Positions 5,725-49,457 of a stretch of 64,000 nucleotides of DNA are shown one piece after another. A model generated the notes under the pieces. It had not been told where the DNA came from, did not search any database, and saw nothing but the letters and a program-made list of their open reading frames with translations. Position 1 is the first letter of the stretch. Each line of letters begins with the position of its first letter. The translations under genes and the position numbers were made by a program. This DNA comes from Deroplatys truncata (lineage: Eukaryota; Arthropoda; Insecta; Mantodea; Mantidae), in NCBI GenBank assembly GCA_030765065.1, contig CM060990.1, positions 278,035,341 through 278,099,340 on the forward strand, given 5' to 3'.

Positions 5725-5734
5725 TGGTGGTCAC

Positions 5735-7256: not shown

Positions 7257-7390
7257 AAAATAACACTTGGACGTTACGTTCGTCCTACCTAATACCTGAC
7301 TACCTGCTATCCACGATCACCTACCCGTCCGCATTCCGATCCTTGCTCGGTAAACCATCAACTCCACCCCCATGGCCGCTACTTGTCTTG

Positions 7391-16130: not shown

Positions 16131-16425
16131 GTCCTCCATGGTGTAGTGGTTACCACGATAGCCTCTAGTTCCTGAGGTTGCGGGTTCAAACCCGGCAGAG
16201 GGCGATGGATTTTTCGGGCGTAAAAATCCTTAGCATGGCTTCCTTCGGAAGGGAAGTAAATTCGGTGGTCCCGTGTCGTAGATTTACGGCACGTAAAAGA
16301 GCCTCAAGCCTGATAAAGAGGCCTATGGGAAAAAATTACCTGTCTTTCACGCCCAATACAGAATGGGACACTAAGAACCACAGCAGTTAAAGAGCGTCCA
16401 TATATAAACCTCAATTTAGTTTTAG
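16131..16425 (+). mobile_element. tRNA-headed SINE, copy 1
   Basis: The head (about 16132-16203) resembles a tRNA: an A-box-like TGGTGTAGTGG and a B-box GGGTTCAAACCC. The body carries TCGGAAGGGAAGTAAA and TAGATTTACGGCACGTAAAAG, and the 3' end is AT-rich (CTCAATTTAGTTTTA). RNA polymerase III would transcribe such an element from the internal boxes. Three relatives occur on the minus strand at 25935-26233, 31083-31265 and 62828-63094. It interrupts the CCTAACC block of copy A. It is not a tRNA gene: the acceptor stem does not close and the body continues for over 200 bp. Confidence 0.88.
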
Positions 16426-18763: not shown

Positions 18764-20036
18764 CGAGGCGCATCCAGAAAGTAAGTTTTCCTATTTTTTT
18801 AAAACAAAGAAAACCTAGTTACACGAAAAACCTTATCGACAACAGATACAGCAATGTTTGAGCTATTTTACGACAAATTTCACCACAAAAATTGACACAC
18901 TTGTCATATCGTGGGACCAACTTTTGTATTCGTGTGGCGTAGAAGTCTGCCGCCTATAATGGAACCAGCGTGTAACAGTCGTCTTCAGCTCTTCGCCGTT
19001 GTCAAAACGCTGACCGGAGGATAGGAATTTCTTGACGTCCAAGAAAAGATAGAAATCGCTTGGCGCAAGATCAGGATTATATGCTGGATGATCAAACAGC
19101 TCCCAGATGGAACTCCTGCGGAACAGCTCTGTGCGCCGAGCCGTATGTGGACGAGCATTGATATGCAGCAGCACATCTATAGTAAGCACTCCATGCCTTT
19201 TGTTTTAAATGGCACGTCGCAATTTCCAGTCTTTCACAATAACGGTCAGCGTTCAGTTTCACCTCTGGGCAGGAAGCCAATGACCCTACTGCCCTTCGTG
19301 TCCCAGAACACCATGGGCATCACTTTCTGCACCGACAGTCTGCTTGAATTTCGTCTTAACCGGAGATCCACTGTGACACCAATGCATTGACTGCTGCTTG
19401 GTTTCCGGGATAAAGTGCGAAATCCACGTCTCATCGCCCGTGACGATCCTGTCGAGGTACTCGTCATCATACCGCTGCAGAAATGTCAGTGCTGCTCCTA
19501 AACGTTTCGTTTTGTGCTCGGGTGTCAGGTTTTTCGGCACCCACCTAGCAGACAATTTCATGCAACACGGATCGCGATATCTGCGGAAAATGGCTGCTGA
19601 GCTCCGTAATCGTGAAGCAACGGTTCTCCAAATGCGCTACCGCACCAGCTTAACAAGATCATCATTGATGAGAGACGGTCGCCCACTGCGCTCTTCATCA
19701 TGGACACTTTGACGACCTTCGGAAAATTGCCTACACCAGCGACGCACCATCTGTTTGCTCATGATGTTCGGCTCGTAGACCTGACAGAGCCGACGATGAA
19801 TTTCGATCGGCGCTATGTTTTGCGCAGGAAGCAACTTTATCACTGACCGAACCTCACAGGCGGAGGGAGAACGAATAAGAGCCGTCACTGCTGCTGCGCT
19901 ACTAGCACCAGGCGAGACCTGTCCGGCCGACATATGATTGATGTCTTAGATCTGTTACGCATGTGCAATTTTCCCAGCTAAATACGTTTAGCTTAAAGGA
20001 AACAAAACCAGGAACTTACTTTCTAGATGCGCCTCG
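18764..20036 (-). mobile_element. mariner element B, TA-flanked
   Basis: The ends are CGAGGCGCATCCAGAAAGTA at 18764 and the complement of CGAGGCGCATCTAGAAAGTA ending at 20036, one mismatch in 20. A TA dinucleotide flanks each side (18762-18763 and 20037-20038), the expected target duplication. The element is 1273 bp, a normal mariner length, and carries a broken transposase on the minus strand. Confidence 0.95.
18863..19933 (-). pseudogene. mariner B transposase, broken
   Basis: The minus-strand pieces are ordered as a mariner transposase. 19933-19637 is the helix-turn-helix domain (IEIHRRLCQVY, WCRQFSEGR). 19561-19286 carries VTGDETWISHF with the first catalytic Asp. 19189-18863 carries a degraded INARPHTA block and YNPDLAPSDFYLF with the third Asp. 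The block that should hold the second Asp reads HINARPH, so that Asp is lost (expected at the Asn-Ala motif). At least two frame changes separate the pieces, so the copy is inactive. Confidence 0.9.
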
Positions 20037-20132: not shown

Positions 20133-20345
20133 ACTTAGTGGAATTAATTGTTCTTTCACACAAGCCGTGTGTTGGACAAGATTGGAAAGGTAGAATCAGA
20201 TGACTGAAAAATTCAATGCCATAGCCGGGATTTGAACCACGGATCTCCCGGTCTCCGTCCAGTTGCTCTAACCACTGAGCTACCATGGCAACATGCCGGC
20301 ACGCCATTAAATTCTCCAGCTGACTCGCATTTTTCCCGGTAAACC
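20133..20345 (-). mobile_element. Second tRNA-SINE family, copy 1
   Basis: On the minus strand a tRNA-like head (about 20290-20218) has an A-box TAGCTCAGTGG and a B-box GGTTCAAATCC, followed by a tail ending in a stretch like AACAATTAATTCC. The frame reading WLEQLDGDREIRGSNPG is a familiar by-product of such heads and is not a gene. A truncated copy lies 320 bp away at 20455-20597. It is unrelated to the SINE at 16131. Confidence 0.75.
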
Positions 20346-20454
20346 ACAAGGAGATCTAAAACTGTATTGAGATGTCATACTCCAATGGCGACTTACATTC
20401 TTTGTAAGTACTTAAGTCCCGGGCTTTTAGTTTCAACCACTATTAGGTCAATTA

Positions 20455-20597
20455 ATGGAATCAATTGTTCTTTCACACAAGCCGTGTGTTGGACAAGGTT
20501 GGAAAGGTAGAATCAGATGACTGAAAAATTCAATGTCATAGCCGGGATTTGAACCACGGATCTCCCGGTCTCCGTCCGGTTGCTCTAACCACTGGCA
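20455..20597 (-). mobile_element. Second tRNA-SINE family, truncated copy fused to a LINE
   Basis: The sequence repeats 20133-20285 closely (same ACACAAGCCGTGTGTTGGAC and GGATTTGAACCACGG) but stops within the A-box region at GCTCTAACCACTG. It then runs directly into the I-type LINE at 20598. Both parts have the same orientation, so the join looks like a chimeric retrotranscript or a deletion junction. Confidence 0.75.
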
Positions 20598-22860
20598 CTC
20601 AGGCGACGTAACACCGACGGACGCGCCGATGAATAGACAATGCACCCGTAATCAAGCTTGGATCGGACCAAAGAGCGGTAAAGATGTAAAGGACGGTCCG
20701 ATCAGCTCCCCAGGATGTGCTACTTAAAACACGTAAAATATTAAGAGAACGGTCACACTTTGCTTTCAAAAACGAAATGTGCGAAGTACAGCTCAGGTTT
20801 TGATCAAAGATGAACCCCAAAAATTTCACCTCGTCTGCAAATGGAAGGACCTCAGGCCCAAGATGGAGAGAGGGCGGACGGAAAGCCTTCCGGCGCCAGA
20901 AGTTGATGCAGACGGATTTCTCGGCGGAGAAATTCAAGCTGTTGGCGTTACTCCAGGCGTAGAGACGGTCGATACAGCTCTGCAGACGGCGTTCGAGCAG
21001 ACAGGTCCGCCGTGAACTGCAATAAATGGCAAAATCGTCGACGTAAACGGACGAAGAAATGCCAGGTGGAATAGAAACAACAATGGGGTTGATAGCAATC
21101 GCAAAACGTGTGACACTGAGTACAGAGCCCTGCGGTACTCCGTTCTCTTGAATAAAACGACTAGAAAAAAACCGAGCCCACACGTACACGAAAGGCGCGG
21201 TCTGTCAAACTCCCGAAGAAATATGGGAAGACGACCGCGGATATTCCATGCGTGAAGTGTACGTAAAATGCCGCCCCTCCAACAAGTGTCATAAGCTTTC
21301 TCCAGGTCATAAAACAAAGCCACGGTTTGACACTTTCTCAGAAATCCATTCATAATATACGTTGACAGGGACACCAGGTAGTCGACGGTAGATCGATGGC
21401 GACGAAATCCGCACTGAGCGTTCGCCAGAATTTTCTGAGACTCAAGCCACTGTCAACCGCCCGTTGATCATGCGCTCCATCACCTTGCAAATGCAACTGG
21501 TGAGAGAGATAGGGCGGTAGCTGGAAGGTAGTTGGCGATCCTTCCCAGGCTTAAGTATAAGGACAACGGTGGCTTCGCGCCAAACTGAAAGAAAAACGCC
21601 GCCCTGCCAAATACGGTCATAGACCTGTAAGAGAAAGAGTTTACTGTCGGCTGAAAGGTGCTTTAACATCAGGACATGAATGCCGTCCGGCCCAGAAGCG
21701 GAGTGCCTCGGTAAAAGGAGGGCGTGCTCCAGTTCACTCATTGTGAAAAGCTCATAATAACACTTCTGATTTGGAGACCGAAAACTATAGGTCACGGAAT
21801 AAGCAGGTCTTTGAGAGTGCGAAAGCCGGCGCAATAATGGTCAGAACTGGAAACCGCCTCAAAGGCAGCACCCAGAGTGTTAGCAACGGCAGCCGGATCC
21901 ACTATGGTGGCATTGGAAACCTTAAGGCCAGACACAGTACAATGCGACACTTTACCGCAGAAACGACGAAGTTTATCCCAAACAACAGAGGAAGGCGTGA
22001 AACGATTAAGACTCGACAAAACAAGTCCAAGATGCCTTCTTGCTATCCTGAATAATGCGACGAGCCCTGTCGCGCGATTGTTTAAAAGTAACCAAATTAT
22101 CAAGTATAGGGTGTCGCCGAAGCACCCTGAGTGTAGCTCTACGGGCGCGAACGGCGTCCCGACAGTCCTCTAACCACCACGGTACAGGAATACGCCGAGG
22201 GTGGGAGAACGAACGGGGAAAAGTGCGTTCGGTGGCAGATAGGATCGTAGACGTAAGGTGCTGCACCATTTGGTTCACGTCAGTGAAGGACTGGTCCACA
22301 AAAGACACGAGGCTGGAATACAGTCAGCAGTCGGCTTTAAGGAATTGCCAGGTAGGTGCTCTGGAAGGCTGGAAGTGGTGAGACAAAAGAGAAACGATGC
22401 AGGGGTAATGCTCGCTGGAGTACGTGTCAGCGACGACGTTCCACTGCAGACAAGGAGCAAACGGCAAGGTCCAAGTGAGAAAATGTACCAGAAGAATCAG
22501 AAAGAAAAGTAGGCTCGCCTGTATTGAGTATGGAGAGGCTGAACTGATAAAAAATATCGGAAAGGAGAGTTCCCATCGCACAAGCCCTCTGCGACCCCCA
22601 CAGGGGGTGATGGGCATTAAAATCTCCCAACAGAAGAAATGGTGTTGGGAGAGCGCACAAGAGATCGCGAATGTCACGTTAGCGAGGGGAGACGATGGAG
22701 GTGAATAGAAGGAGCACAGAGAAAAGAAAAAGCCGGGTAATTCAATCCTAACGGCAACAGTTTGCAAGTCGGACGTTAAGTGTGAGAGGCTGAAAATGAA
22801 CGTCGTTACGCACTAATAACATGACACCTCCATGAGCAGGAGATCCCTCCAGTTCTTTTA
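20598..22860 (-). mobile_element. I-type LINE fragment (EN and RT)
   Basis: The minus strand reads, from high to low coordinates, an endonuclease segment (LLGDFNAHHPLWG near 22630-22590), the EN-RT linker (22308-21792), and RT blocks (21834-20600) including YRPISLTSC, FYDLEKAYDT, NGVPQGSVLS and SVYVDDFAIYC. The VDD catalytic pair is intact near plus-strand 21025-21045. Several frameshifts and stops break it (for example around 22310, 21440 and 21190). The combination of YDLEKAYDT and VDDFAIY is what I associate with the I/Nimb-type clades. The C-terminal RNase H region and 3' UTR are missing. Confidence 0.85.
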
Positions 22861-25239: not shown

Positions 25240-27150
25240 TAGATCGAGTACCAAAGGGTGGATTTCAGAACTAAGGGGCCTAAGACAGATAGAATAAGGC
25301 TGAAACGCTAGCTATTATTGCGAAGAATTAATTACGAAATACTTTTATTTATGAAATATTACTTGGTTCGACTCTAGAAGCTTTGTACAACTCAGAAAAA
25401 AATACTTTACACGGGATTAGGGTGAAATGTAATTGTTTTCCACCAATATGAAGTATTTATCATCTAAGGATTTTCATACTGCATAATGATGCTATGGAGA
25501 ATTAAGAAAGGACGGAAAGAACGAATAAAACGGGTGAAAACTAGTAGAATATTTGAAACGAATGAAAGAGAAAGAAAATCGGTTACTTTACTTTTTGTTT
25601 GCTGCTTCTTAAGCATTGTGGTGATGGTGTTAAGGTTTGCTGTAATGAGTCTTTTTTTAACGTTTCTTTGTTTTATGGTTGTGTTAAATGTATTTGATTG
25701 TGATCGTGGTGGTGGTTGTTGTTTACTGTTTGATTGCCCTGTTAGCTTAATTTATTTTTGTAGCCTTCTATTTATGTTTGTGCTTGTTTCTTATATTTTA
25801 TGGGAATGGTGTTGATTCTTGTGGTGATGGTTGTGATAGTAATCCCTTATTTTCAATGTTGACTTTACCCGTTTTGTTTTATTTTTCAAGTTAATGCTTT
25901 GCTGATTATGTTGTGCTTATTTAATATTTTTCTAACTTAATCATTAAATTGGGTTTCTTATTTATGGACGCTCTTTGGCTGCCGTGGTCCTTAAAGTCCC
26001 GTTCTATATTGGGCGCAAAGGATCCGTAATTTTGATCAGAGGCCTCTATCAGGCTTGAGGTTCTTTTACGTGCCGTTAATCTACGACATAGGACCACCGG
26101 CTTTACTTCCTTTCTAAAGGAAGCCATGCTAAGTATTTTTACGCCCAAAAAATCCATCGCCCTCTGCCGGGTTTGTACCTGCAATTTCGGGAACCAGAAG
26201 CTAGCACGTTAACCACTACACCACGGAGGACGACTTCTAACTTAAAGGTCGCATGATGGTTTTGTTCGTGTTTGTACTTGTGATGTTTGTAAATGTTTAT
26301 GATGGTAGTGGTGGTGGTGCAGGTGGTGGTGGTTACAGTCCGTTTCCTTACTTTTATTGCCTTATTTTTTGTACTTTTTATGCGAATGGTGATGGTATGT
26401 ATACCTGCGGTACTTTTAAAGTGATAATGGTAAGTACCGATGATGTAACTCTTTTGAGGATGCGGTAAGATATATGAATATAATGAAAAAATTAGATAAA
26501 CAACAAAGGAAAGATTTATTGGATGGAAACAGAAAAGAGAAATAAATGACTAATGAACGAACGAGGGAGAGAGGATTAAAAGTTTAGAAGCATAAAAGAG
26601 AAGTAACGATGGATGCAATGAACGGAAACAGAAAGAGTAACGCAAGATTAAAATGATGGAACAGAAAAGAGAAAGAAATATTAATGAAATGTATGAAGGA
26701 GGGAGAAAAAAGAAAAACAAGAAAGATTTAATGGATGCAAGCACAAAGAGAAACAAATATGAATAATGAATGAACGAAATTTATAAAAAGTGAGAAAAAG
26801 GAAGACTTAATGGAAGGAAGCAAGAAATATGAATGAAATAAATTGAAGAGAGCAGGGTGGTGGGTTTGCTTGTGATGGTAACGCTAATGCAGATGAAAGT
26901 AGTTTCTGTTTCTATGGTAATGGTTTGCTGCTTATGCTTAGCTTAATTTGGGCTTATTTTATTCACTTTTTTTAAAAAATTAAAGGTGACTAGCGGTTTT
27001 ATTGGAGTCTATGCTTGAGATGATTCTAAATGATAAGGATGAGTATGGTTGAATGTAACCTTTTCGGGGATGTAATAGGAAATATGAATGTAATGTATTA
27101 AAGGGAGAACAAATCAGAGAAAGGAGTGAAAACGGGGAAGCGGTAAAGAG
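25240..27150 (-). repeat. Large TTAGG-rich complex repeat, copy C (inverted)
   Basis: This block is the reverse complement of the last part of copy A (about 17840-18720): GTGGTGATG-rich DNA, and a GA-rich part (about 26460-26830) matching the CT-rich part of A, for example GGATGGAAACAGAAAAGAG against CTCTTTTCTGTTTCCATCC-like sequence. It carries a SINE at 25935-26233. Frames such as 25486-25815 and 26253-26468 are by-products of the simple composition and are not genes. Confidence 0.65.
25935..26233 (-). mobile_element. tRNA-headed SINE, copy 2
   Basis: Reverse-complement relative of the element at 16131: the right end (CCACGGAGGACGAC) is the tRNA-like head, the body contains TTTACTTCCTTTCTAAAGG and TACGTGCCGTTAATCTACGA, and the left end is the AT-rich tail. 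It looks full length, with scattered substitutions (for example the B-box region reads GGGTTTGTACCTGC). Confidence 0.88.
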
Positions 27151-27564
27151 AAAGGTAGTATATAAATGCGAATTTTAAACGCTCTTAATATGCAGGAATT
27201 TGCAACTAATATGTTAATTAATGTTCCCCTTCCATATGCTAACTCCCCTGGTACCTTTGTGGTAACGGGGATCATAAATTTTGTAATGTTTAATGAAAAA
27301 AGGTTGACAGGTAACATGCATCCGTGTTATTTAGGTCATTCACATCCTGTCAAAGGGGACAATGGGCTGTAAAATATTATGCTTTGTCATACTCGCCGAC
27401 AAAGAGCAGACGCACGGCGCCATACCCATAACACCGGGCCACGTTCATTACCAGAGACTCCCTGGGAGCAATAATTTTTCTTGTATTGGTTTGCTGGAAT
27501 GTCAGGTAACATGCACCTGTCATCATCGCCGACAAAAAAGGCAGATGCGTGACCCTAAAGCATT
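27151..27564. other. Unassigned spacer with short direct repeats
   Basis: Two diverged direct-repeat units are visible: GGTAACATGCATCCGTG at about 27310 against GGTAACATGCACCTGTC at about 27505, and CGCCGACAAAGAGCAGACGC at about 27393 against CGCCGACAAAAAAGGCAGATGC at about 27527. The plus-strand frame 27166-27372 has no known family. No gene call. Confidence 0.45.
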
Positions 27565-28440
27565 AACATTCATACGTTTTTCCCTACTCACTTTTTTCCA
27601 CATCAGAGATTTCTCTACTCTTCTTCCATTAACATTCATGCGGTTTTCCCCACTCGCTCTTTTTTGACTTCACAGAGATTTCTACACACTCATCTTCCAT
27701 TCCCTCTAACACGGTTTTCTCGGCGCACTCTTCTTCCATTACCATTCATACGGTTTTTTCTACACCCTCTTCTTCCGTTGATACTCGCACGGTTTTCTCT
27801 GCACTCTTCTTCCATTAACATTCATGCGGTTTTCTGTATACATTCTTCCATTCACACTCTCACGGTTTTCTCGGCGCTTTTCTTCCATTAACATTCATAA
27901 GGTTTTTTCTATACATTCGTCTTTCATTCACACTCACACGGTTTTCTCTGCACACTTTTTTCACATCACAGGGATTTCTACACACACTCTTCTTCCATTA
28001 ACATTCACACGTTTTCCCCACTTTTTGCATATCATAGGGATTTCTATGCACTCTTCTTCCATTCACATTCATACAGTGTTCTCTATGCCCTCTTCCATTC
28101 ACACTCAGTTTTTCTCTGCACACTCTTCTTCCAGTAACATTCATACGGTTTTCCCTACTCACTTTTTTCAACATCAGGGATTTCCACAAACACTCTTCTT
28201 CCATTAACATTCATACGTTTTCCCCACTCTTTTCTTTCAATCACAGGGATTTCTCTACAAACTCTTCTTCCATTAACATCCATACGTTTTCCCCACTATT
28301 TTCTCTCACATCACAGGGATTTCTCTACACACTCGTCTTCCATTACATTAACATTCACAGATTTTCCCTACTCTCTTTTTTGCACATCACAGGAATTTCT
28401 CTACATTCTTCTTGCATTAACATGGGACGCACGAACAGAT
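27565..28440 (-). repeat. Satellite resembling truncated C2H2 zinc-finger units
   Basis: Imperfect tandem units of about 69 bp carry two half-modules each, seen on the plus strand as CATTCATACGGTTTTC and CACAGGGATTTCTCTACACAC. On the minus strand the units read AGAGAAAACCGTATGAATGT and AGAGAAATCCCTGTGATGTG. In one frame this gives words like RKPYEC followed by WKKSV and RNPCDVKK, which parallel the linker and first half of a C2H2 finger; the helix and His pair are absent. Stops interrupt every unit, so it is not a coding array. A short outlying piece lies at about 29425-29570. Origin from a zinc-finger gene is inference. Confidence 0.6.
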
Positions 28441-29424
28441 AACGTCATACTTAACAGGCAATGAGAACTGCCGTGTATTCATGTTCAGGCAGAGAAATTT
28501 AAAGTAGCAGTTTTAAAATATGCAACACGATTGTACATTAGTATCGCAATATAAGTAACCTCACAGATCATTAATGTTAAAAATTAATTGCGTAAGGGAA
28601 ACTCATGTATGACTATTTCGATACGTAGTACTATAGTACCGGGGTATCTAGACGTAAATAGCATTGGAAATTATGACTTTGCAGAATTCAAATGACGACA
28701 CCTATACATAAAAAACGAGATAGATTCGGATGAAGAAGACCCCGGAACCTTCCCCCAAGCAGGCAGCATTCAGAAAAACATTGATGTATGTTCATATCTA
28801 GAAACAAATCTTTGTTTCATTTCCCTGTAACCTAACAAAATGTAATTCTACCCAGGCTACCGCATTCACATGATTTTCACCCCACACATTTTTATAGCTT
28901 GTGTAAATGCATTACGGAGATACTCTGAGAGGGAGAGGGGGAATTGAAACAAGTAGGGATAGAAATGCTGAGGGCTTCTGCGCATGTGCAGCAGGTGATA
29001 ATTTCATTGGGTGCAATAATTGCGTGTCATGTAAACAACTACACAAAGACGCGCATGCCCAGTAACGGGCTTAGGCTTCAATATAAACGCTAACGATACT
29101 TTTTAGAATCATTGTGAGTTTATTAACTCTGCATTAAAATTAAAACACTCGTGTGCTGTAGTTTTAATTGAAGTGAGAGTCATTTCTTTCTACACAGCAT
29201 TCATCATTAATACAATGCAAGGCGAGTGAGGTTTTACATAAATATAGAAATCAGTGTTGATTTTTTACGATGCATTTAATTTTGTTTAACGATACAGTGC
29301 ATGAAAGACGAATCTGTGCAAGAAAATCACATTTTTATCTTGACTTCAACGTTTAAACAATTATCTTCGAAATTAAATTCTTAAAAATGTAGAGCTTTCT
29401 TCACTACTGCAAATTTCGTTAGAC
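28441..29424 (+). promoter_or_regulatory. Candidate promoter region and partial exon/intron duplicate upstream of the OB-fold gene
   Basis: TGCGCATGTGCA (28979-28990) and GCGCATGC (29051-29058) resemble NRF-1-type palindromes. TATAAA lies at 29082-29087 and a TCATTG initiator-like site 27 bp downstream at 29109. ATGCAAG follows at 29215. The same order and spacing (TGCGCATGTGCA, TATAAAA, TCATAG, ATGCAAG) occurs at 54295-54455. Separately, 28786-28855 has intron-like borders (GTATG...CCCAG), and the sequence before its acceptor matches the end of the intron at 30089-30381. All promoter statements are inference from motif and spacing. Confidence 0.45.
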
Positions 29425-29570
29425 TCTAAAGCATTAACAATCACACATTTTCTCTACACACTCTTCAACCATGAACATTCATATGTTTTCCATACTCAAT
29501 TTTTTTCATCCTCACAGTGATTTACTCTTACATTCACAATCACACAGATTTCTCTACATACACGATCGTC
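29425..29570 (-). repeat. Outlying piece of the zinc-finger-like satellite
   Basis: The words CATTAACAATCACACATTTT, CTCTACACACTCTTCAACC and CACACAGATTTCTCTACATAC match the satellite at 27565-28440. The 28441-29424 segment appears to separate the two parts, either by insertion or by loss of intervening units. Confidence 0.6.
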
Positions 29571-29809
29571 ACAAACTAACACTTCTACCATGCAACCGAA
29601 TCTGTACGAAGACCTACGAGTATCCCCGAACACAAAGATGCATACACACAAGTCACTTGCACACATACGCATAAATATGCTTACAAAAACGCATTCATGT
29701 AGCAACACACACACACACGCACCCACAATGGTTCTACGTTCTTTCCACGGGAATGCATTGAAAAAATAATTCATGATCAATGTCAGTGTGTTTAGCACAT
29801 AGACTTAAG

Positions 29810-30597
29810 ATGGCTGAAGCGAACAGTTTCTTGCCGGCTCGGAGAGTTCAAGATCTCAAAATAGGCATTACATGCGAGATAAACGCCTTAAAGAGAGCTC
29901 AATGAAGATACGGTACCAGGATCGTATTTTCGCTGGAGGATTGTCAAGTGTTCTTGCCTAAACGATATAATTGGATAACCGACAAAGAGCTTGCAGAAAT
30001 GCCAGGAAAATTATATTTGGTACACAATTGTATGACAGAGATGGGGAAATTTAAGACATGTAAATTGGCTTTTGTGCCCACAACGAAGGTATGTAGAAAT
30101 GGCAAACTTAAATATTCAATGTTTTCTTATTTTACAATGACAAAAAATTCATAAATAAAACAGCTGTCTCATTGATATTACATATAAAAGATACAATCCA
30201 TTGAATTTACATATAAAAGACACATGCTAAAGAACTTATAAAAAAATCATGAAATCACAATGCCACATGTTTTGAATTCAGTTATTATATATATCGCATT
30301 GAAATAACGTCTGATCTGAGTGTTTATGAAAATCTTGTTTCATTTTCCATGTAACCTAACAAAAAATGTGATTCTTTTCAGGTTACCTTCACTTCCAAAA
30401 GCATGATTTCTAAGACTTTCATTGTGCAATGCTTCAGATGGAATAAGGGGAAGAAGAACAAGAGCAGATTTGCAGATCTGGAAAGGATGCCGACATTCTT
30501 TGAAGTTAGAATAACCACCTCACCGAAACATGCAATAAGCGCACGCAAGGACGTCTACATACTGAGAAGCCCCAATGTTAAGATAGGATTCTTATGA
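29810..30597 (+). pseudogene. OB-fold-like small protein gene of an endogenous virus, two exons, one stop
   Basis: The frame starts at the ATG at 29810. Exon 1 (29810-30088, 93 codons) has an in-frame TGA near 29900, directly followed by RYGTRIVFSLEDCQVFLPKR, a core I associate with short OB-fold, probably ssDNA-binding proteins carried by endogenous insect DNA viruses. A donor (AAGGTATGT at 30089) and an acceptor (TTTTCAG ending at 30381) are in phase 0. Exon 2 (30382-30597) adds 71 codons of basic sequence ending KIGFL and a stop. The product would be about 164 residues. The capsid-like genes lie about 1.4 kb downstream on the other strand. The fold and ssDNA role are inferred from remembered family resemblance; exon 2 is not recognised. 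Confidence 0.55.
30089..30381 (+). other. Apparent intron of the OB-fold-like gene
   Basis: GTATGT at the 5' edge and ATTCTTTTCAG at the 3' edge, 293 bp, phase 0. The sequence before the acceptor (GTAACCTAACAAAAAATG) recurs as GTAACCTAACAAAATG at about 28826-28842, before another intron-like acceptor. Splicing is predicted by eye only. Confidence 0.5.
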
Positions 30598-31900
30598 CAT
30601 TCCAGTGCATATAGTGAAAAACACGGGCAATTTTGTATACATTCCAATGCAATAGCTGAGTTAGTTCGAGCGAGTCTCCCTATATTCAGCGAAAATAAGA
30701 ATTGGGAGCACTAATTTAAATGATTGTGAGAACAGTTCTTAAATAGTGATAAGACTTGTAATTTAAAAAGACTTGAATCCTGTATACGTTAGCAGTGTCA
30801 AGACTATTTGCAGTGAGGGAAAAAAACGATGAAAATAGAGACATTCATTTCAATAATGGCAATGGGTTTTTATTTTCCCCCACTCTACCTTTCCTAAGCT
30901 GATATAGATATCATTATGAAAAAATAATTCATTAATTACATGAAATCAATGCATTATATATGCATTGTTCTCGGGAAAAAATCAAATAAAAATACTATGC
31001 TAAGCGCATGGGTACTGCTGAAAGAAAATTTGCAGGTCTCAGGATAAGTACACAGTCACAGCCAGAGACCCGAGTTTAAATTAAACTAAATTGAGTGTTA
31101 TTTATGGACGCTCTTTAACTACTATGGTCCTTTGTGTCCCATTCTATAGTGACACGGGACCACCGGCTTTACTTCCCTTCCGAAGGAAGCCACACTAACG
31201 ATTTTTACGTCCGAAAAAATCCATCGCCCTCCGCCGGGTTTGAAACCGCGACCTTGGGAACTAGAGGAGTTTGAACCTTAGCGATGCGAGTGTGCAGGTT
31301 AAAAAAATGCCTGATACTGTTTCATCATATATGGAAGAAGACATTACCGGCCCTGGATACCTAAGCACTCAGACACAATCAGAGACCCGAAGCTAAAACT
31401 TAGTGTTCCATACTAATATACTATGCTAAGCGCATGCACATAGCTGAAAGAAAATGTTGGTTTCAGGATACCCAAGTATATGCTCACATCCAGAGACCTT
31501 AGTTTGAGCCTTTGCGAGACGATCTTGTAGGTTAAAAAAATTATAAAAAATGAAGAGTATCATTTCATTCCTGCAATAGCATGGTTTTGTTTTCTTTCCC
31601 TCCACCCTCCCAAAGCATTCATGTCGTCTGTTAAGCCAGTATGTTATGCCACATCTCTGTTATGCCGTAAGAGCTGTATTGACAATGTAGCTAATATATT
31701 TTCTAAATGAATCACGTGACAAAACTCGATCCGATGACTTTCCACATTAGGAAACTAGCCAAATTTAAGTGAATACACTGGGGGGGGTGAAAGAAACGAT
31801 TTAGGTAACCTAACCATTGCATGTGTAACGCCATATTCAGGAGCGAATAGTTGGAGGCGGAAAGTACTGGAAATTGTGTGATAAAAAATCATAAAAAAGA
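30598..31900. repeat. Imperfect direct repeats with a SINE fragment
   Basis: Segments around 30855-31075 and 31420-31620 repeat each other loosely: TACTATGCTAAGCGCATG occurs at about 30993 and 31420, followed in both by GCTGAAAGAAAAT and then a CAGAGACC word; a further CAGAGACCCG lies near 31380. The SINE fragment at 31083-31265 falls between them. No gene is recognised. About 31660-31900 is unassigned. Confidence 0.5.
31083..31265 (-). mobile_element. tRNA-headed SINE, copy 3 (truncated)
   Basis: Shares TTATGGACGCTCTTTAACTA, CACGGGACCACCGGCTTTAC and CCTTCCGAAGGAAGCCA with the other copies. About 75 bp of the middle of the body is deleted and the A-box end of the head is missing; only the B-box side (GGGTTTGAAACCGCG) remains. 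Confidence 0.8.
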
Positions 31901-31974
31901 ATGAAGGTGTGCTTTTGCAACTTCTTGTATTCATTAAAAATCCTTAATTTCCTAATGAAAAAGAAATCCTTACA

Positions 31975-33205
31975 TTACAATAAAAGCTGTATCACACGAG
32001 TCAGAGGCTTGTATGTAAATACTTTATCAGGAATTATCAAAAAATACAATGAGGGCTGTATAGGGATATTTGCAACAGCTGGAATTTCTATTCTGATGTT
32101 GACAGCTCCATTTACAGTTTCCTCAGGTTGATGCGAGCAATCTATAACGAAGATAGGGGCATATTTAAGAAAATCTTTTCTCTTCAATAAAGGGTAATTC
32201 TCTTTTTCATAATAAGAGGTTTGAAACTTTGAGTAGTTGTCATACAATGATGCAAATCTAGAGTTTCCAAAGTCCGAGTTCATGTCGTGGTATGGATAAC
32301 ATTCACTATTAAGATAAAGACTTAAATTAGTTGTTACAATGATCAAAAGGGGAACAGTCTTTAGATGCATTACTCGATCTTGTAGTCTGAGCACCTAAAA
32401 TCACAAATCTCGGCTTCTCCATTTTTGATGTGGTGCCGACATTCCTAGTGGATGATTTAGTTTGCGGCACAGCAGGCTGAGTATGCAGATCCGTAGTTCT
32501 AAAGGGGAGAAACAGCGGCTTGACAATCTTGAGGATTTCAACCTTTTCAGCATCAGAAAGTCGAATCAGACATTCTCCACTCGATTCGTACAAGTTTACT
32601 AGTAGCACTCTCTTCACCCTGAGGCGCTATAAAGCAATTTTAGAGTCCTTGGATCGAATCAGCACCAACTCAAACTTGCTATTGAGTATGAGCTCCTTGT
32701 GGTCAACAAATTCCAGAAGCATCGAAAGCGGTACTATAGCATTGAAGGCTCCATTTGCTGCATGTACAATGTCAATGTCTTCTCCAGGGTAGCACCATTC
32801 AGCCAGCAGACGAGCAGATTCCATTGGGTTGAGAGCAGCATAGTTGTTTAAAGTTGATGTGATCCCTGGTTTTATGGTTCGATCAATAGTTAAGCCATTC
32901 ATGTCCAGTCGAATCTCCTCAAACATGAATGCAATAGAGTTATTGGCAAGCTTTGCAGTAGTAGCAGCTCTATTAGGTTTAGTAATACTTCCCTCGATGT
33001 ATAGATAACTTCCATTACGTAAAGTATATAAATTCTCAGCTTGACAAGGGATTCCAATCTCGTCATTAGCGTCCAGAGCTGATGTATAAGACAAAAACAC
33101 ATATTCCTCTTTGGTGATCTCGTTGTCGAACCTCGATGTCTCGGTAACATTGAAGATGCCCATGATTATAGGATTCTTAAACCCAATGCCTGGAGGAACT
33201 CTCAC
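31975..33205 (-). pseudogene. Endogenous double-jelly-roll (DJR) capsid-like gene, two lesions
   Basis: The reading frame runs from 33205 to 32627, meets a TAG stop, continues in the same frame to about 32345, then shifts frame and continues to 31975; the total is about 400 codons. Recognisable blocks are FMFEEIRLDMNG (first jelly roll), a GAFNAIVPLSMLLEF stretch, ELVLIRS, EKPRFVILG, then in the second part SLYLNSECYPY, FQTSYYEKENYPLL and FVIDCS. Together they match the family I know as DJR-like proteins, widespread as uncharacterised or virus-derived genes in insect genomes and thought to be major-capsid-like. Only one stop and one frameshift are obvious, so it is a mildly decayed endogenous viral sequence. 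The penton-like gene lies just upstream in the same orientation. Confidence 0.75.
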
Positions 33206-33298
33206 TTGAATGATGTTAACGCACTAGTTGTCAATGGTGGAGCATGGAGTGTGCGTCGAATCATCCCATTATTATATCCTCGACGCTGCTGATTTCTT

Positions 33299-33935
33299 CT
33301 AAAATCTATTGGCAGTGCGACGAATGTGAAGTCTTATGCTTATATCGTTGTTTCTAAAGTCAATTATGTTACCGTTATGGTCCACTATACTAAGACCGAT
33401 TTGCTCTATGATGTAGGTGTTAATGAACGGTAGGTAAATTGGATTCGATGGTTCTTGAGAAATGTGATATCCAGACAGAACAGATGAGAAACAAAACTCA
33501 TAGATCGAGTGCCCCCCGCTTTTACGATCGATGAAAGAGACTTGCAATACTGCACTCGATTCGTATGATGCTCACCTTAAATATATTACCAGGAAATCAG
33601 ATTCGGCAAGCTAATTAGCTGGAATAACTTTATTGTCCCTAAAAACTAATAGTGATACTATAGGAAACGCATTGGGGAAAAATCAACGGTGAAAGGGCAT
33701 TTAATTTAAGTCTTCATGGCATTATTAATAGGTCTAATAAAGAAGACATTCACATCCACGCCTTGCTTATCTCTCTGATGTATTCATTAATATTAGGAAT
33801 CTCGTAAGTTCCATAGGATATATCGATGACCTTAATTTCATCATTGTAAATGTATTGAAATGGATTATTACTCTGATCACCATTGGGAATGGAATAGAAG
33901 GTTTCAAGAAAATCAATAGAGCAATCTCATAATGC
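33299..33935 (-). pseudogene. Endogenous penton-like (single jelly roll) gene, decayed
   Basis: The minus-strand 5' part (about 33935-33770) reads an NNPFQYIYNDEIKVIDI-type segment and a GTYEIPNINEYI segment; after several lesions, the 3' part (33547-33299, open) reads GHSIYEF, NPIYLPFINTYIIEQIGLSI and a DFRNNDISIRLHI end. The block order and position directly upstream of the DJR-like gene match the companion protein usually found with that capsid-like gene in insect genomes, which I interpret as penton- or minor-capsid-like. The middle (about 33770-33550) is degraded. The family assignment is from remembered resemblance; the structural role is inference. Confidence 0.6.
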
Positions 33936-33939
33936 CACT

Positions 33940-35691
33940 TACGGACTCTCAGCAGAGGGAGATTCAGGTATGTAGTAAGAACAGATTCGTTGATGGCTTG
34001 GTTGTGATGGCTGTGCTAGTGATCAATACAGTAGTGGTGGGAATGAATGAGAAGGGACAAAGAGAATTTGATCCTTTATTTAAGGTCGTGGTAATGATGT
34101 CGGTTAAAGCTTCAGTTGTGCTTATGGTATTTGTTAATCTGTTAGTGGTAATGATGGTGATGTTGGTTTGTTTATGCTTGCCTCTGCCATTGCTATGGGA
34201 CAGTTTGCCCGTTTACAAGCGTTTTTATATAGGGGTTATAAGGCAAGTTTGGACGTGTCGGAGAGAGCCAGACATTGTCTGCCTGTTTGGCTATAACGTC
34301 ATATGGGGTTAATACATACAGACTCTAAAGTGAGTGATATGCAGCAAACCCCGGCTTTATGTAAAAGTTTTGAGCTTAACTACTCAATTGGATACCGGTC
34401 ACGTTATATAAAAGGTATATGTTCGTGAAAGGCAGGAGTTTGAGAGATATAAACACCGTTTCAATGGTAACTTGAAGGCTCGATTGGGTTGAAAGCATAT
34501 ATAAACGAAAAGCATTTAGATAATTAGGTATTCACGAATGTTATATATATACAATTTGTCTTCATAAAACTTCCACATACATAACATGCATACTACCGAC
34601 AGCTAGAAATAGAAGTACGCTGAAACAATCTAGGAGTCCCAATCCCTCATAAAAGAGAAGATACGTCCATCTATAAACCCGAATAAATCTCGCAATGTGC
34701 TAATTAGCCTTATACAAATCAACACAAAATCTGAAGAAAATTCCGTAGTTCTCAAGATCACTGTAAAAATGCACAAAATACTGAAAACTATATGAAAGTT
34801 TTCATAAAAGAAGGCAAAATAACCTTAAACGTGCTAAAAGACCATAGAAACTTAACAAAAAATGCTGATAATTATGTGGTGTAAGGACAAGAGGCGCTCA
34901 ATTTAAACAAAAATATCATCTTCTAAGCTAACTTAGGTAAACATGGATACATAACGAGAGGACGGTTAGCTAAGACTAGGTTAGGTTAGCATGGAAGGGA
35001 TCAGGTTAGCTTAGGTGTGTAGGAAAGGATAGCCGGTGTAAAGACAGTTTAGGCTAAGGTTATATAGGGCAGAATAGGTGATTAGAGGGTGGTCCAGCTA
35101 TGTTACCTTGGCTGGTATCGAATCAAGGTAGAAGATGACAGGACCGTTGGTCCATTAGGTTAGTATGGTTTGGAGTTACGGTAGTTTTAGATTATGACAG
35201 GATAGTACACATGACGGAGAGGACGGTTAGCTCAGATTAGGTTAACATGGGAGGGACCAGGTTAACTTAGGTGTGTAGTAAAGGATAGCTGGTGTAAGGA
35301 CAGTTTAGGCTAGCTTAGGTTGGTTTATAATAGGGCAGAATAAGCGATTAGAGGATGGTCTAGATGCTAATTTGCCTAGTACTGAATCAGGGTAGAGAAT
35401 GACAGGACCGCTGGCCTATTATGCTAGGTTAGGTTGGTTTGTAGTTACGGTAGTTTTCGATTACGACAGGATAGAAAAAATGAGAGGACGGTTAGCAAAG
35501 ATTATGTTAGGTTAACGTGGGGAGATCAGGTTAAATAGGTGATGGCAGGATGGGATAGCTGGTGTAAAGAGAGTTTATGCTAGCTTAAGTTAGGCAATGA
35601 TAGGGTGGAATAGATAATTAGAGGATGGTTTAGCTAGGTTATCATTCTTGGTGCCGGATTAAGGCGGAACTATGACAGGGCCGTTGGCCTA
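33940..35691 (-). repeat. Large TTAGG-rich complex repeat, copy B left part (inverted)
   Basis: Reverse-complement counterpart of copy A. About 33940-34330 is the GTGATG-rich block, about 34580-34690 the unique tag (CAATCTAGGAGTCCCAATCC), about 34700-34910 the CATTTT block, and 34940-35691 the TTAGG-rich block. The segment at 35580-35691 matches the complement of about 15986-16105 closely (for example AGGGTGGAATAGATAATTAG). It is interrupted at CCTA by the LTR element and resumes at 44551. The frame 33932-34312 is not a gene. Confidence 0.75.
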
Positions 35692-36623
35692 TGAAGTAGA
35701 ATATTTTTAGGTAGTTGGAAGATGCTTCATGTTTATATGCACCACGTATGGAAGCCAATTTGTCGCGGTCACTTCGTGTTATCTATTGCTGAGCGCCTGT
35801 TATTGTTTTATTATTTTGCATTTTGGGTACACTGTGCTCCGGCTAGCTATTATTTCTCGGTCGAGCACATCTCTTGAACAGGTGTGTAAACGGAAAGGAT
35901 TTGTTACTCAAAGATAACACTGATAAAAGAATTTGTTTTTACACTTTTATTACCGTCACAATTAAGTTCACATATTGATTCGTGATACACGCCAAACTGA
36001 AACTGTTATATTTTCTAATATCACTATAATCACTTATTTACTGCACATTATTAATTCGCGTTTCACATTTATAACAAACTTTAAGACGCGAGAGATTCTG
36101 TAGAATTGCGACGTGTACTTTATGTATGCTTTCGTTGAACTACGCGACGTGTAACCCGCGAACGATTCTGATGAACTAACTGTGCGACGTATAACGCGTG
36201 AATGCTTCTGTTGGACTGACGAAATCTGCCTCTGACTTTAGCTTTTTATACCCCCACACCCCGATATGCCTAAAGATTATAACCGAGCTGCTATTGGTTA
36301 ATAAAACGCGCCAACATTAGCGTCTATTTTTATATCCAATCAAAAAATTACGAAAACATATGCTCTAGGGAAAATATTCCCGCTATTTCTACGAAAAGCG
36401 CGCCAATCTGACGTCATTTGTTTGTCTCTTCTAATTAATATTCAACTCACCCCCTCGCACATTGTTATCCGCTCCTATTGTCAGTTTCAGTGAGGCCGTG
36501 TAAACTTATTTCCTAACAATGCTTATAATTAACAAACATTTCAAATCAATGTCATACAATAATGCTTATTTACACTACAATCACTCTGGCATTTACATTA
36601 TTGTGATACAAATTACTGCCACA
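35692..36623 (-). repeat. 3' LTR of the LTR retrotransposon
   Basis: The 932-bp repeat reads TG...CA on the minus strand (TGTGGCAG ... CTACTTCA). It matches 43619-44550 with about a dozen mismatches by eye (roughly 1 percent). A flanking CCTA at 35688-35691 repeats at 44551-44554. The 62-codon frame found in both LTRs is a by-product. Confidence 0.95.
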
Positions 36624-38894: not shown

Positions 38895-41385
38895 GTGTTG
38901 TGGGTTAATGCAATTATGAAAATAGTTCAAATTAACTTGCAGCACTGTAAGGCAGCTTCAGCCATTCTAAGTAAGAGACTTGTTGAAGACAATGTTGATA
39001 TTGCTCTCATACAGGAACCTTGGCTCTTCAGAGGTTCAATTAAAGGGATCAGTTGTACTAAGGGCACTATATATAGACCTAGTAATAATAATCCAAGATC
39101 ATGTATTTATGCTAAGAATTGGATAAACGCATTGCTTCTTACTGAGCACTGTTCCAGGGATGTAACTACAATCCAAACAATAGTGGAGGAGGCAGGAGAG
39201 AGAAGAGTTTTAATACTCTCTTCCGTCTACCTCCCTTACGAAGACTCTGATCCACCATCGATAGCGGTGAGGGACCTTGTGACCCACTGCGGAGAGTATG
39301 GAAAGGAGTTAATCCTGGGGGTTGATGCCAATGCACACCACACACTGTGGGGGAGCACTGATATCAATCCCAGAGGAGAAAAGTTAATGGAGTACTTGGT
39401 GAGTACAAACCTTAATATTCTAAATCGAGGTAATGAACCAACCTTTGTAACTTTGCGAAGGGAGGAAGTCATTGACATAACGATAGGGACTAATATTATT
39501 GAGAACCTAATTTCAAGTTGGCGTGTATCATCGGAGATCACTCTCTCTGATCATAGATGCATATGCTTCAATATCAAAGCACAAGTCACTCTACCAGTGA
39601 TTTACAGAAATCCGAGGCAAACTGACTGGGACGGATATAGACGAGACCTATCAGCATTGACATCGGGTATCTCAAGGAACATTCGTTCGATATTGGATGT
39701 GGAGTTTGCCGTTGATGAAATACAACGGTCAATTCTCCTATCCTATCATCAAAATTGTCAGCCTAAGGTAGCTTACTCGCCAAGGCTTGTGCCTTGGTGG
39801 ACTAAAGAGTTAAGCAGACTTAGGAAGAAAGCAAGGAAATTATTTAGACTTGCAAAAAGAACTGGTGATTGGGATTCATATAGACAAGCCCTCACCAATT
39901 ATAACAAAGAAATACGTAAAGCCAAAAGGATTTCGTGGAGGGAGTACTGCCAGGGGATGGAGAATGTTCCCAGCAGTGCAAGATTCATGAAACACATGGC
40001 AAAGGGCGTACACACAGTCTGGTTGAGACGCTCCTGCAACTTGCGAGGGCTCACTTTCCAGACTTTAAGGTAGACAATGACAGCAATTCTGTGAAGGGGC
40101 AACCAAATCTGGACCATCCTTCTTTGGACAGAGAGGATTGGAACCTAATCAGGAGCGTAGTCAATGTCACTAAAATACGATGGGCTGTCAAGTCGTTCGG
40201 ACCATATAAATCGGCAGGCCCAGATTTAATCATCCCTGCTTTTCTACAATATGGTATTGATTCGGTTCAATCCCTACATTGTGGTATTTTTAGTTTGTCT
40301 AGCCTATGGATATATAGCCATGGCTTGGAGACAAACAAAGGTGGTGTTTATACCTAAACCAGGGCGTCCTAGCTAAGCCCAGGCCAAGGCTTATCGCCCT
40401 ACAAGTCTCTCCTCTTTTATGCTTAAAACTCTGGAGAGGTTAGTGGATAGGCACATTAGGGATTATGTTTTAATGGAACATACATTAAACAAGTACCAAT
40501 TTGACTATCAAACAGGGAAATCAACGGAACCAGCACTTCATCAAGTGGTCTCGACTATTGAGAAGGCGCTTAATACCAGAGAAATAGCCATTGGTGCTTT
40601 TCTTGATATTGAAGGTGCGTTTGACACGTGACGAACGCCCTCTATGGAGACGATGTACCTTCACTTCTTTGTGAGTGGATACGTTTTGTCTTACAACATA
40701 GGAAGATAACCATGAATCTATGTGGGGAGACGCTGGATGTGTCCACGGAGAGGGGCTGCCCGCAGGGGGGTGTTTTATCACCCCTGCTATGGAACCTTGT
40801 AGTGGACACACTTCTTTGCGCACTCAATAGTGCTGGTTACTTCACAGTTGGTTTTGCAGATGATATTGCAATAATCATAAGAGGGAAATTTCCTCACACA
40901 GTTTCTCAAGTGCTACAAATGGCGCTTGAGAAAGTGGAAGCTTGGTGCAAGATGAATAATCTAACTGTTAATCAAAGCAAAACAGTAGTGGTACCCTTCA
41001 CCAGGAGAAGGGGGCCTGATTTAACCAGACTCTCTCTCTCTTTTGTGAAGTAGTGCCCTATTCAACACAAGTTAAATATCTTGGGCTTGTTTTAGACAAG
41101 AAATTAACCTGGAAACATCACATAGAATTATGTATTACCAAAGCCTACAGAGTCCTTTGGACATGTAGAGGTATGCTTGGTAAGACATGGGGTCTGAAAC
41201 CTAGCAGTGTATTGGATATACACTGCCATGGTGAGACCTATATTCTCTTATGCCGCACTGATGTGGTGGCCTAGAGTTAATTTAAAGGTGTGCATAAAGG
41301 AACTCTGTAAATTACAGAGGACCTTCTGCATTTCAATTATGGGAGCCTTCAAAACTACTCCAACTGCGGCAATGGAGATGCTGTC
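38895..41385 (+). pseudogene. R1-type LINE ORF2: endonuclease and reverse transcriptase, broken
   Basis: The endonuclease is intact over about 38925-39570: QINLQHCKAA, ALIQEPWL, LGVDANAHHTLWGS and TLSDHRCICF carry the Asn, Glu, Asp and His of the active site. The linker to the RT continues to 40073, then the frame breaks. The RT fragments are 40419-40631 (DIEGAFDT with the first catalytic Asp), 40628-41053 (RGCPQGGVLSPLLWNL and GFADDIAI, both Asp of the pair intact) and 41053-41385. Breaks occur near 40030, 40350, 40630 and 41050. GCPQGGVLSPLLWNL is characteristic of the R1/LOA group. The RNase H or zinc-knuckle end is missing. Confidence 0.88.
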
Positions 41386-41389
41386 GACC

Positions 41390-43183
41390 TGGTCTCCCAT
41401 CTATCCCCGGTCTTTCAAAACTTGGAACGTATGATTGGTACCGTTGTCTGGTATTATTCTCATGACGTCTGTCTTGTCCTCTACTTTGGTTATAATAACT
41501 ACCTTGGTAATTTCGTCTATCTCGCACATCTAAAAATCTATGCTCCCACTCTCGAGATATATCTTCTTCCTGTTGTTCCAAAGCTGTCATTAATTCTGTC
41601 ATCTCATAGATACTACGTGGTTTTCCAATTAATAAATAATTTTGTATCCTTAAAGGATAATGCCTTGTGAGCAAACTCACAAAATCTTCCTCATTGATTG
41701 GAGGTGACAAGTTCATAACCTGACTTGCATGTTTCAGTAAGTAATCAGTCATTGATATTCCCTCTCGTGGATCAAATTGACCATGACTAAGCATTGCCCG
41801 TATTCTGTGCTGTACCGTAACATTCCAAAATCTGTTCATGAATAGCCTCTTAAAGGATTCATATGAAATTTCACACCCTGATACCATTTGTAACCAATCT
41901 AAAGTTTTCTGGTCGAAACATCTTTTGATAACTATCATTTTCAATGCTTCCGGTATCTTTTTAATTTGAAAATATTCTGACAAGTCTGCAATAAACTGTA
42001 CTGGGCTGGAGTTTTCATTAAATTTTGGAAGCGGAAAATCACTTAAGATATGATTATAGTTTAGCAAATCCCCTGCTCCCATATTTAAATTCTCTAGTGT
42101 TACTTGTGCACTCTGAGTTTCAGCATGAACTATAGATGAAGCCGCCGCACCACTCACATTATTAGTCATACCTGAGGAACTACCTCTATCATTATTCTGC
42201 ACATCAGATACATTAACATCACATATATTTACCCTTGAATTCAATTCTAACCTATTTACAGTACCTTGCAGACTTTCTATTGTTTGTTCCATTTTTTTAT
42301 TATTCTCATTTTGAACAGCTTGGTGCTTGTTAATTTCAGAAGTTAGTTTTTGATTCAAATCTATAGACAAGACTAACTTCTTCAGACAATTTATTTCTTT
42401 GCGTTTCTGACTCCTTCTGTATTTCAGATATCTCCCCTCTGAAATTAGCTTGCACCTGAATTAAATCTGCATTCATCTCTCTTAGCTCACTTGAAATGCT
42501 ACTCATTCGACTTCCTAACTCTGTACATTTTACACTAACATGTTCAAACTTGGTATCAACCTCACTTTTTTGGTTAGATATTTCCCTGCTCATGTCTGAC
42601 ATTTTGTTTGAAACTTTCCCTATCTCATTTCCTATCATTTCCTGATTTTCATTTCTCATTCTTGTCATACTGCTATCTAGCTCCATAAATTTCTTTTCAA
42701 TTTCTTCCGTTTTGTTCTAAGCTCTTACCAATATATTCCCTCAATTCCCTATTATTCTTTTCCATATTCTGAGTTAGTTTTTCTAATTTTTCACTAGTCT
42801 TACCAATATCTTCCCTCAATTCCTATTATTCTTTTCCATATTTTGAGTTAGTTTTTGTTCTAAACTCCTATCAATATCTTCCTTTAATTGATCTGATTTT
42901 TGCTCTAATTTCTCAATATTCTTTTCCATATCTTCCCTGTTTTGATCTAATTTTTGCTCTAATTTCTCAATATTCTTATTTACTGTTTCGCCAAAATTTC
43001 TCAACATTTCCATCATACCAGCATTAAAATTAACATTTCCTGCTATTCTATTCTGACTTTCTTCACTAAAATTTCCTCCCTCAAATCCTACATTGTTTGA
43101 GCTATTTTCTGTAACCTGTATTGAATTACAGCTGTTACATTATCTCCCTCCATAATTGTTTCTTCAGTATTATTAGTGGACAT
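41390..43183 (-). pseudogene. LTR retrotransposon gag-like gene, frameshifted and 3'-truncated
   Basis: The start codon at about 43183 begins MSTNNTEETIMEG. A long coiled-coil region follows over 43016-42336 in more than one frame; at the DNA level it contains local tandem repeats (QKLDQNREDMEKNIEKLEQK). The main open frame (42370 to about 41400) carries the retrotransposon gag capsid segment, with FPLPKFNENSSPVQF, a FMNRFWN stretch and MTDYLLKHASQVM, then an RNA-binding basic tail (RDRRNYQGSYYNQSRGQ). It then runs into the antisense R1 LINE near 41390, so the nucleocapsid end and pol are lost. It would package element RNA if it were whole. Confidence 0.75.
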
Positions 43184-43618: not shown

Positions 43619-44550
43619 TGAAGTAGAATATTTTTAGGTAGTTGGAAGATGCTTAATGTTTATATGCACCACGTATGGAAGCCAATTTGTCGCGGTCACT
43701 TCGTGGTATCTATTGCTGAGCGGCTGTTATTGTTTTATTATTTTGCATTTTGGGTACACTGTGCTCCGGCTAGCTATTATTTCTCGGTCGAGCACATCTC
43801 TTGAACAGGTGTGTAAACGGAAAGGATTTGTTACTCAAAGATAACACTGATAAAAGAATTTGTTTTTACACTTTTATTACCGTCACAATTAAGTTCACAT
43901 ATTGATTCGTGATACACGCCAAACTGAAACTGTTATATTTTCTAATATCACTATAATCACCTATTTACTGCACATTATTAATTCGCGTTTCACATTTATA
44001 ACAAACTTTAAGACACGAGAGATTCTGTAGAATTGCGACGTGTACTTTATGTATGCTTCCGTTGAACTACGCGACGTGTAACCCGCGAACGATTCTGATG
44101 AACTAACTGTGCGACGTATAACGCGTGAATGCTTCTGTTGGACTGACGAAATCTGCCTCTGACTTTAGCTTTTTATACTCCCACACCCCGATATGCCTAA
44201 AGATTATAACCGAGCTGCTATTGGTTAATAAAACGCGCCAACATTAGCGTCTATTTTTATATCTAATCAAAAAATTACGAAAACATATGCTCTAGGGAAA
44301 ATATTCCCGCTATTTCTACGAAAAGCGCGCCAATCTAACGTCATTTGTTTGTCTCTTCTAATTAATATTCAACTCACCCCCTCGCACATAGTTATCCGCT
44401 CCTATTGTCAGTTTCAGTGAGGCCGTGTAAACTTATTTCCTAACAATGCTTATAATTAACAAACATCTCAAATCAATGTCATACAATAATGCTTATTTAC
44501 ACTACAATCACTCTGGCATTTACATTATTGTGATACAAATTACTGCCACA
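43619..44550 (-). repeat. 5' LTR of the LTR retrotransposon
   Basis: 932 bp, near-identical to 35692-36623. Differences include GCTTAATG against GCTTCATG and AGACACGAG against AGACGCGAG. It would hold the element's promoter. The flank CCTA at 44551-44554 completes the target duplication. Confidence 0.95.
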
Positions 44551-49330: not shown

Positions 49331-49457
49331 GCAGCTACTACACCAGGAAGTTTGGTCAATATATTGTGAGCCCTTGTCTATGTTATTTACCAAGGTGGTT
49401 TTTTTTTTTTTTTCATTTTGTTCCATCTCTTCCTGTAAATAATCACAGAATGTAGTC

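What the first reader, a model, noticed from the sequence alone, without database searches (positions are those of the whole stretch)
31975..33935. Adjacent penton-like and double-jelly-roll capsid-like genes: an endogenous DNA virus module
Two minus-strand genes sit head to tail in the order known for insect-integrated DJR-virus modules. The capsid-like gene has only one obvious stop and one frameshift over about 400 codons, so it is either a recent integration or was under selection for some time. Seen: block order and short motifs (EIRLDMNG, ELVLIRS, EKPRFVILG, FVIDCS). Known: proteins with this block order occur widely in insect genomes as uncharacterised DJR-like proteins. Inferred: virion-capsid origin.
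Basis: partly seen in the sequence, partly recalled or inferred. Interest (0 to 1): 0.9.

Follow-up and report, generated by a model that had tools for sequence, protein, structure and literature searches.

The report
Decayed insect-type viral capsid gene remnant
This stretch of animal-type DNA holds a broken leftover of a virus shell gene, probably with its partner gene next to it, a kind of viral fossil already reported from insects and ticks.

Summary
On the minus strand three stop-free pieces (33223-32630, 32626-32330, 32394-31978) each match Pfam PF21738, double jelly roll-like domain, above its cut-off (E 7e-25, 2.9e-11, 2.7e-30), in order, over profile 2-103, 130-209 and 210-315 of 316. 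The penton-like gene (33926-33302) is less certain: no family hit reaches its cut-off; position fits, identity rests on recall. No PolB or Walker A motif was found in six frames of the window. The module lies in a 7.8-kb stretch that splits one arm of a long inverted repeat, among mobile elements. Best reading: a decayed remnant of the structural module of a polinton/adintovirus-type DNA virus. Such remnants are reported from the Colorado potato beetle and ticks (PMC9963324, PMC10675110; passages). No usable fold, dN/dS, host name or copy count could be obtained. Ordinary; interest low.

The parts
32630..33223 (-). Capsid-like gene, piece 1 (198 aa open frame); residues 91-194 match the DJR-like domain, residues 1-90 lie outside the match
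   Evidence: PF21738 E 7e-25, 88.3 bits, profile 2-103; 41% identical over 46% of its length to P0001, a 114-aa database protein that bears PF21738
32627..32629 (-). In-frame stop codon breaking the capsid-like gene
32330..32626 (-). Capsid-like gene, piece 2 (99 aa open frame), same frame as piece 1
   Evidence: PF21738 E 2.9e-11, 43.6 bits, profile 130-209
31978..32394 (-). Capsid-like gene, piece 3 (139 aa open frame), another frame; followed by the stop 31977-31975
   Evidence: PF21738 E 2.7e-30, 106.1 bits, profile 210-315 of 316
33302..33926 (-). Penton-like (minor capsid-like) gene, badly broken; longest pieces 33926-33753 (58 aa) and 33571-33302 (90 aa)
   Evidence: Open frames; directly upstream of the capsid-like gene on the same strand; no family above its cut-off; label by position and recall
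26720..34546 (.). About 7.8 kb carrying the module, between two parts of the right arm of a long inverted repeat (approximate edges)
   Evidence: Left arm 17431-17853 matches 34935-34538 and left arm 17857-18333 matches 26719-26235: adjacent on the left, 7.8 kb apart on the right

Best explanation
The locus is a decayed, integrated remnant of the virion-building module of a polinton/adintovirus-type double-stranded DNA virus. [quoted passage not shown] The virus DNA, or part of it, entered the germ line of an animal, probably an insect. It now lies as a fossil with both genes broken and without a recognised replication or packaging gene in the 64-kb window. Shown: the capsid family, the gene order, the breaks in the capsid-like gene, the setting among mobile elements. 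Inferred: the roles in the virion, the penton identity, the virus group, the route of integration, neutrality and the host.
For: 3 of 3 capsid-like pieces match PF21738 above cut-off, in order and in register across the stop. The only database homologue bears the same domain. Frame breaks are visible. Neighbours include reverse transcriptase and transposase frames. Published gene order: the penton gene lies immediately upstream of the capsid gene in virophages and in some Polintons such as P-9_NVi, though in Polintons more commonly one gene away (PMC4028283, passages). Published precedent: more than 1000 contigs assigned to Adintoviridae, with similarity to structural proteins too, from Colorado potato beetle data (PMC9963324, passages); 453 adintovirus integrase-derived insertions in Ixodes ticks (PMC10675110, passages).
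Against: No PolB motif and no Walker A motif in six frames of the window (motif scan), and none of 10 pieces of 24-34 kb chosen by eye (one of them already) has a Pfam match above its cut-off, so the virus group rests on the capsid and on precedent. NCBIfam gives nothing for five pieces and PHROGs one chance-level hit (E 0.038). The fold could not be tested: models of pLDDT 36 and 44. Pattern-based searches found no relative in IMG/VR (pieces 1 and 3, the 90-aa penton-like piece, P0001 and alignment A1) or GTDB genomes (A1), and tblastn of piece 1 none in phage records; these collections hold few animal sequences.
Confidence: 0.8

Rival explanations
1. The capsid-like gene was taken over by the host and kept for some time as a cellular gene, for example interfering with virus assembly, and was lost only recently.
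For: It carries 2 breaks in 1243 nt while the penton-like gene seems to carry more in 625 nt: P = 0.21, 0.10, 0.046 and 0.02 for 3, 4, 5 and 6 breaks there, single comparison.
Against: The count for the penton-like gene (6 by my reading) depends on a family consensus recalled from memory; the test is uncorrected. Both genes are broken now. No orthologue is available.
Confidence: 0.06
2. The module comes from a DJR-capsid virus lineage of animals that is not a polinton and lacks pPolB, as most polinton-like viruses do.
For: No PolB or Walker A motif in the window. PMC11071308 (passages) states that polinton-like viruses mostly lack pPolB and RVE integrase.
Against: Absence from a decayed, interrupted fragment says little; the arthropod precedents that I saw in papers are adintoviruses.
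Confidence: 0.15
3. Only the capsid-like gene is viral; the upstream broken frames are chance or another gene, not a penton. (This concerns the neighbour only and can hold together with the best explanation.)
For: No library supports the penton label: DUF7743 at 20.1 bits is below its cut-off of 27; PDB sequence search best E 0.31. Frames of 58 and 90 aa are not unusual in length: the median longest frame of simulated 7.8-kb regions is 111 aa.
Against: Same strand, directly upstream; the broken region of about 208 codons is near the 227 codons given for the Tlr penton (PMC4028283, passages); it resembles a protein family that I recall from insect genomes (recall, no call).
Confidence: 0.15

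Closest known systems
Pfam PF21738, DJR-like_dom (double jelly roll-like domain)
   Same: Three pieces of the gene match it in order between profile positions 2 and 315 of 316, each above the curated cut-off
   Different: Broken by a stop and a frame change; the first 90 residues of piece 1 lie outside the match
Polintons / adintoviruses (Adintoviridae, renamed Eupolintoviridae; PMC12451622, passages)
   Same: DJR capsid-like gene with a candidate penton gene directly upstream, as in P-9_NVi (PMC4028283, passages), integrated in an animal-type genome
   Different: No PolB or Walker A (packaging ATPase) motif in the window, integrase and protease not profiled over the whole window, no terminal inverted repeat of its own recognised; all may be lost
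Endogenous adintovirus sequences of the Colorado potato beetle and of ticks (PMC9963324, PMC10675110; passages)
   Same: Adintovirus-related sequences in arthropod genome data; similarity to structural proteins in the beetle

Membership tests
PF21738 DJR-like domain | Profile score above the gathering cut-off of 27 bits | tested here: met
   88.3, 43.6 and 106.1 bits for 3 of 3 pieces
PF21738 DJR-like domain | Both halves of the domain present and in order | tested here: met
   Profile 2-103, 130-209, 210-315 of 316 in gene order
DJR major capsid protein | Two stacked jelly rolls in the fold | tested here: inconclusive
   Model of piece 1 with one homologue has pLDDT 36; no fold search was made on it
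Polinton / adintovirus | Protein-primed PolB | tested here: not met
   None of four PolB motif patterns in six frames of the 64-kb window (motif scan only, not a profile; the gene may lie outside the window or be lost)
Polinton / adintovirus | FtsK-type packaging ATPase | tested here: not met
   No Walker A motif in six frames of the window (motif scan only)
Polinton / adintovirus | Retrovirus-like integrase and Ulp1-type protease | tested here: inconclusive
   No integrase or protease family among the 35 different pieces given to Pfam, which are a part of the window's frames; loose patterns gave 5 protease-like and 3 zinc-finger-like matches that I take for chance
Polinton / adintovirus | Terminal inverted repeats (feature recalled) | tested here: inconclusive
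   No inverted pair of 15 bases or more reported within 26600-34650; the larger inverted repeat 15.8-18.8 / 25.5-35.7 kb seems older than or independent of the module, because the module splits one arm
[quoted passage not shown]
   33926-33302 minus, directly upstream of the capsid-like gene
[quoted passage not shown]
   No Pfam, PHROGs or NCBIfam hit above cut-off; model pLDDT 44
Insect endogenous virus | Host is an insect | not testable with these tools
   The genome search did not answer in 9 of 9 tries; no call names the organism

The most novel reading that the evidence does not exclude
The capsid-like gene outlived its penton-like neighbour because the host kept it for a while as a working gene, such as a decoy that spoils the capsids of related viruses, so the locus would be a recently lost case of capsid co-option in an insect.
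Probability: 0.05. Interest if true: 0.5.

Novelty: new member of a known kind. Interest (0 to 1): 0.2.

Why it matters
It adds one fossil to the record of DJR-capsid DNA viruses in animal-type genomes and places a member of the 'DJR-like' Pfam family next to what may be a penton gene. Compared with intact relatives it would help tell whether that family is simply the adintovirus capsid. By itself it changes little.

Tried and rejected
Relatives: pieces 1 and 3, the 90-aa penton-like piece, P0001 and the alignment A1 in IMG/VR, a degenerate DNA pattern (its one match, L001, lies opposite a long open frame of what looks by eye like a phage contig and is unrelated), A1 in GTDB genomes, piece 1 in phage records: no relative. 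Piece 2 was not searched in these. Protein database: one 114-aa relative for piece 1, none for piece 3, none for the small plus-strand frame 29906-30151. PDB by sequence: nothing for piece 1, chance-level hits for the 90-aa penton-like piece and piece 3 (E 0.31 and 0.043). Structure: two AlphaFold2 models, pLDDT 36 and 44, so no fold search was made. THUMP (E 0.043), DUF6005 (0.16) and phrog_31104 (0.038) were rejected as below cut-off or chance. The idea that the large inverted repeat is the virus's own terminal repeat was held less likely, because the module splits one arm of it. No paper was found with PF21738 or with 'DJR-like' and 'insect' together in the held library; this says nothing about papers not held.

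Full report
What is there. The minus strand between 33935 and 31975 carries two broken genes, head to tail. The downstream one consists of open frames of 198, 99 and 139 aa (33223-32630, 32626-32330, 32394-31978). The first two share a frame and are parted by one stop at 32629-32627; the third is in another frame. All three pieces match PF21738, 'Double jelly roll-like domain', each above the curated cut-off: 88.3, 43.6 and 106.1 bits against 27. The profile positions run 2-103, 130-209 and 210-315 of 316, in the order of the gene. The 26 codon positions between the first two matches equal the 26 missing profile positions, which puts the stop inside a formerly continuous frame. In 400 simulations of the surrounding 7.8 kb with its dinucleotide make-up none had an open frame of 198 aa or more, while 40 had one of 139 aa or more; the profile matches, not the lengths, carry the case for the shorter pieces.

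The upstream gene. From 33926 to 33302 the same strand holds a 58-aa frame and a 90-aa frame; I assign shorter stretches in other frames between them by recall. Nothing in Pfam, PHROGs or NCBIfam reaches a cut-off or convinces; the best is DUF7743 at 20.1 bits, under its 27. The position immediately upstream of the capsid gene fits virophages and some Polintons, though in Polintons the penton gene is more commonly one gene away; the broken region of about 208 codons is near the 227 codons of the Tlr penton (PMC4028283, passages). I also recall similar proteins in insect genomes, but no call shows this. I therefore call it penton-like with moderate confidence.

State of decay. With one stop in 1243 nt and 3.8% of point changes making a stop, about 0.021 substitutions per site have passed since constraint ended (95% range 0.0005 to 0.118). 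That proves neither a recent integration nor a period of selection. The penton-like gene looks more broken: 2 breaks in the capsid-like gene against 3, 4, 5 or 6 in half the length gives P = 0.21, 0.10, 0.046 or 0.02. My own count is 6, but it leans on recalled sequence, so I treat it as a hint only. dN/dS was not possible: the only relative found is P0001, a 114-aa fragment with the same Pfam domain, 41% identical over 46% of piece 1 (44% in the alignment).

Surroundings. A motif scan over six frames of the 64 kb found no Walker A motif and no match to four PolB motif patterns. Ten pieces of 24-34 kb chosen by eye, one of them already, gave no Pfam match above its cut-off. Neighbours are mobile elements: reverse transcriptase at 3592-5730 and 20602-21204, a mariner-type transposase at 13127-13558, a piggyBac-type fragment at 49038-49334, and a Tc3-type match just under its cut-off at 55738-56277 (29.6 against 31.5 bits); the element names are my reading of the Pfam families. 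A long inverted repeat encloses the region: 15.8-18.8 kb on the left against 35.7-34.5 and 27.2-25.5 kb on the right (one search lists blocks of 80 nt or more, tandem arrays left out). Two blocks that touch on the left (ending 17853, starting 17857) are 7.8 kb apart on the right (34538 and 26719), and the module lies in that gap. The simplest reading is that the module-bearing DNA was inserted into one arm, though the inner edge is blurred by degenerate repeats (similarity goes on weakly to 26846) and no inverted pair of 15 bases or more was reported within the stretch. A loss from the other arm is not excluded.

Function and kind. In DJR viruses, trimers of the major capsid protein form the facets and a single jelly-roll protein fills the vertices (PMC4028283, passages). 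By that analogy the ancestor's two genes built a virion. Today the capsid-like gene is broken and the neighbour more so. The most likely source is a polinton/adintovirus-type virus, because these are the DJR viruses that the papers I saw report from arthropods: more than 1000 contigs with similarity to integrase, polymerase and structural proteins in Colorado potato beetle data (PMC9963324, passages), 453 integrase-derived insertions in Ixodes ticks (PMC10675110, passages), and adintoviruses associated with Drosophila samples (PMC8363768, passages). The family is now called Eupolintoviridae (PMC12451622, passages). The replication and packaging genes that define the group were not found here, so I do not file it as a member, only as most probably derived from one.

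What could not be done. Structure models were too poor to use (pLDDT 36 and 44). The founding adintovirus paper (PMC8502044) and a 2024 review (PMC11426020) were not held.

Verdict. A correct observation and a sound reading of the capsid gene; the penton label is likely but unproven. The thing is an ordinary viral fossil of a known kind.

Noticed in passing
15830-18767 and 25541-35750: Long, complex inverted repeat around the module (blocks mostly 70-89% alike), with the right arm split by about 7.8 kb; its outer part holds tandem units of about 260-270 bp
   Followed up: partly
29777-30151 (+): A protein-like open frame (82 aa, 29906-30151) on the opposite strand 1.8 kb past the capsid-like gene; it reminded me of small proteins beside such capsid genes (recall), but no Pfam match or database homologue was found
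   Followed up: partly
35692-36623 and 43619-44550: Two copies of a 932-bp sequence at 98.8% identity
   Followed up: no
27561-28423, with a further piece at 29430-29556: Degenerate tandem array of about 70-bp units inside the same 7.8-kb stretch as the capsid-like gene
   Followed up: no
16128-16418, 25945-26234, 31083-31267, 62829-63088: Dispersed short repeat of up to about 290 bp, 81-90% alike; one copy lies in the inverted repeat's left arm and one 0.7 kb downstream of the capsid-like gene
   Followed up: no
41336-42460 (-): Open frame of 375 aa that looks by eye like a retrotransposon gag protein, without a Pfam match at E 0.001
   Followed up: partly
6384-7316 (-): Open frame with PHD finger and GDSL lipase matches upstream of a reverse transcriptase frame, probably the first protein of a non-LTR retrotransposon (recall)
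   Followed up: partly
20135-20277 and 20452-20594: 143-bp repeat, 96.5% identical, the first copy overlapping a tRNA-Ser (GGA) gene at 20216-20290
   Followed up: no
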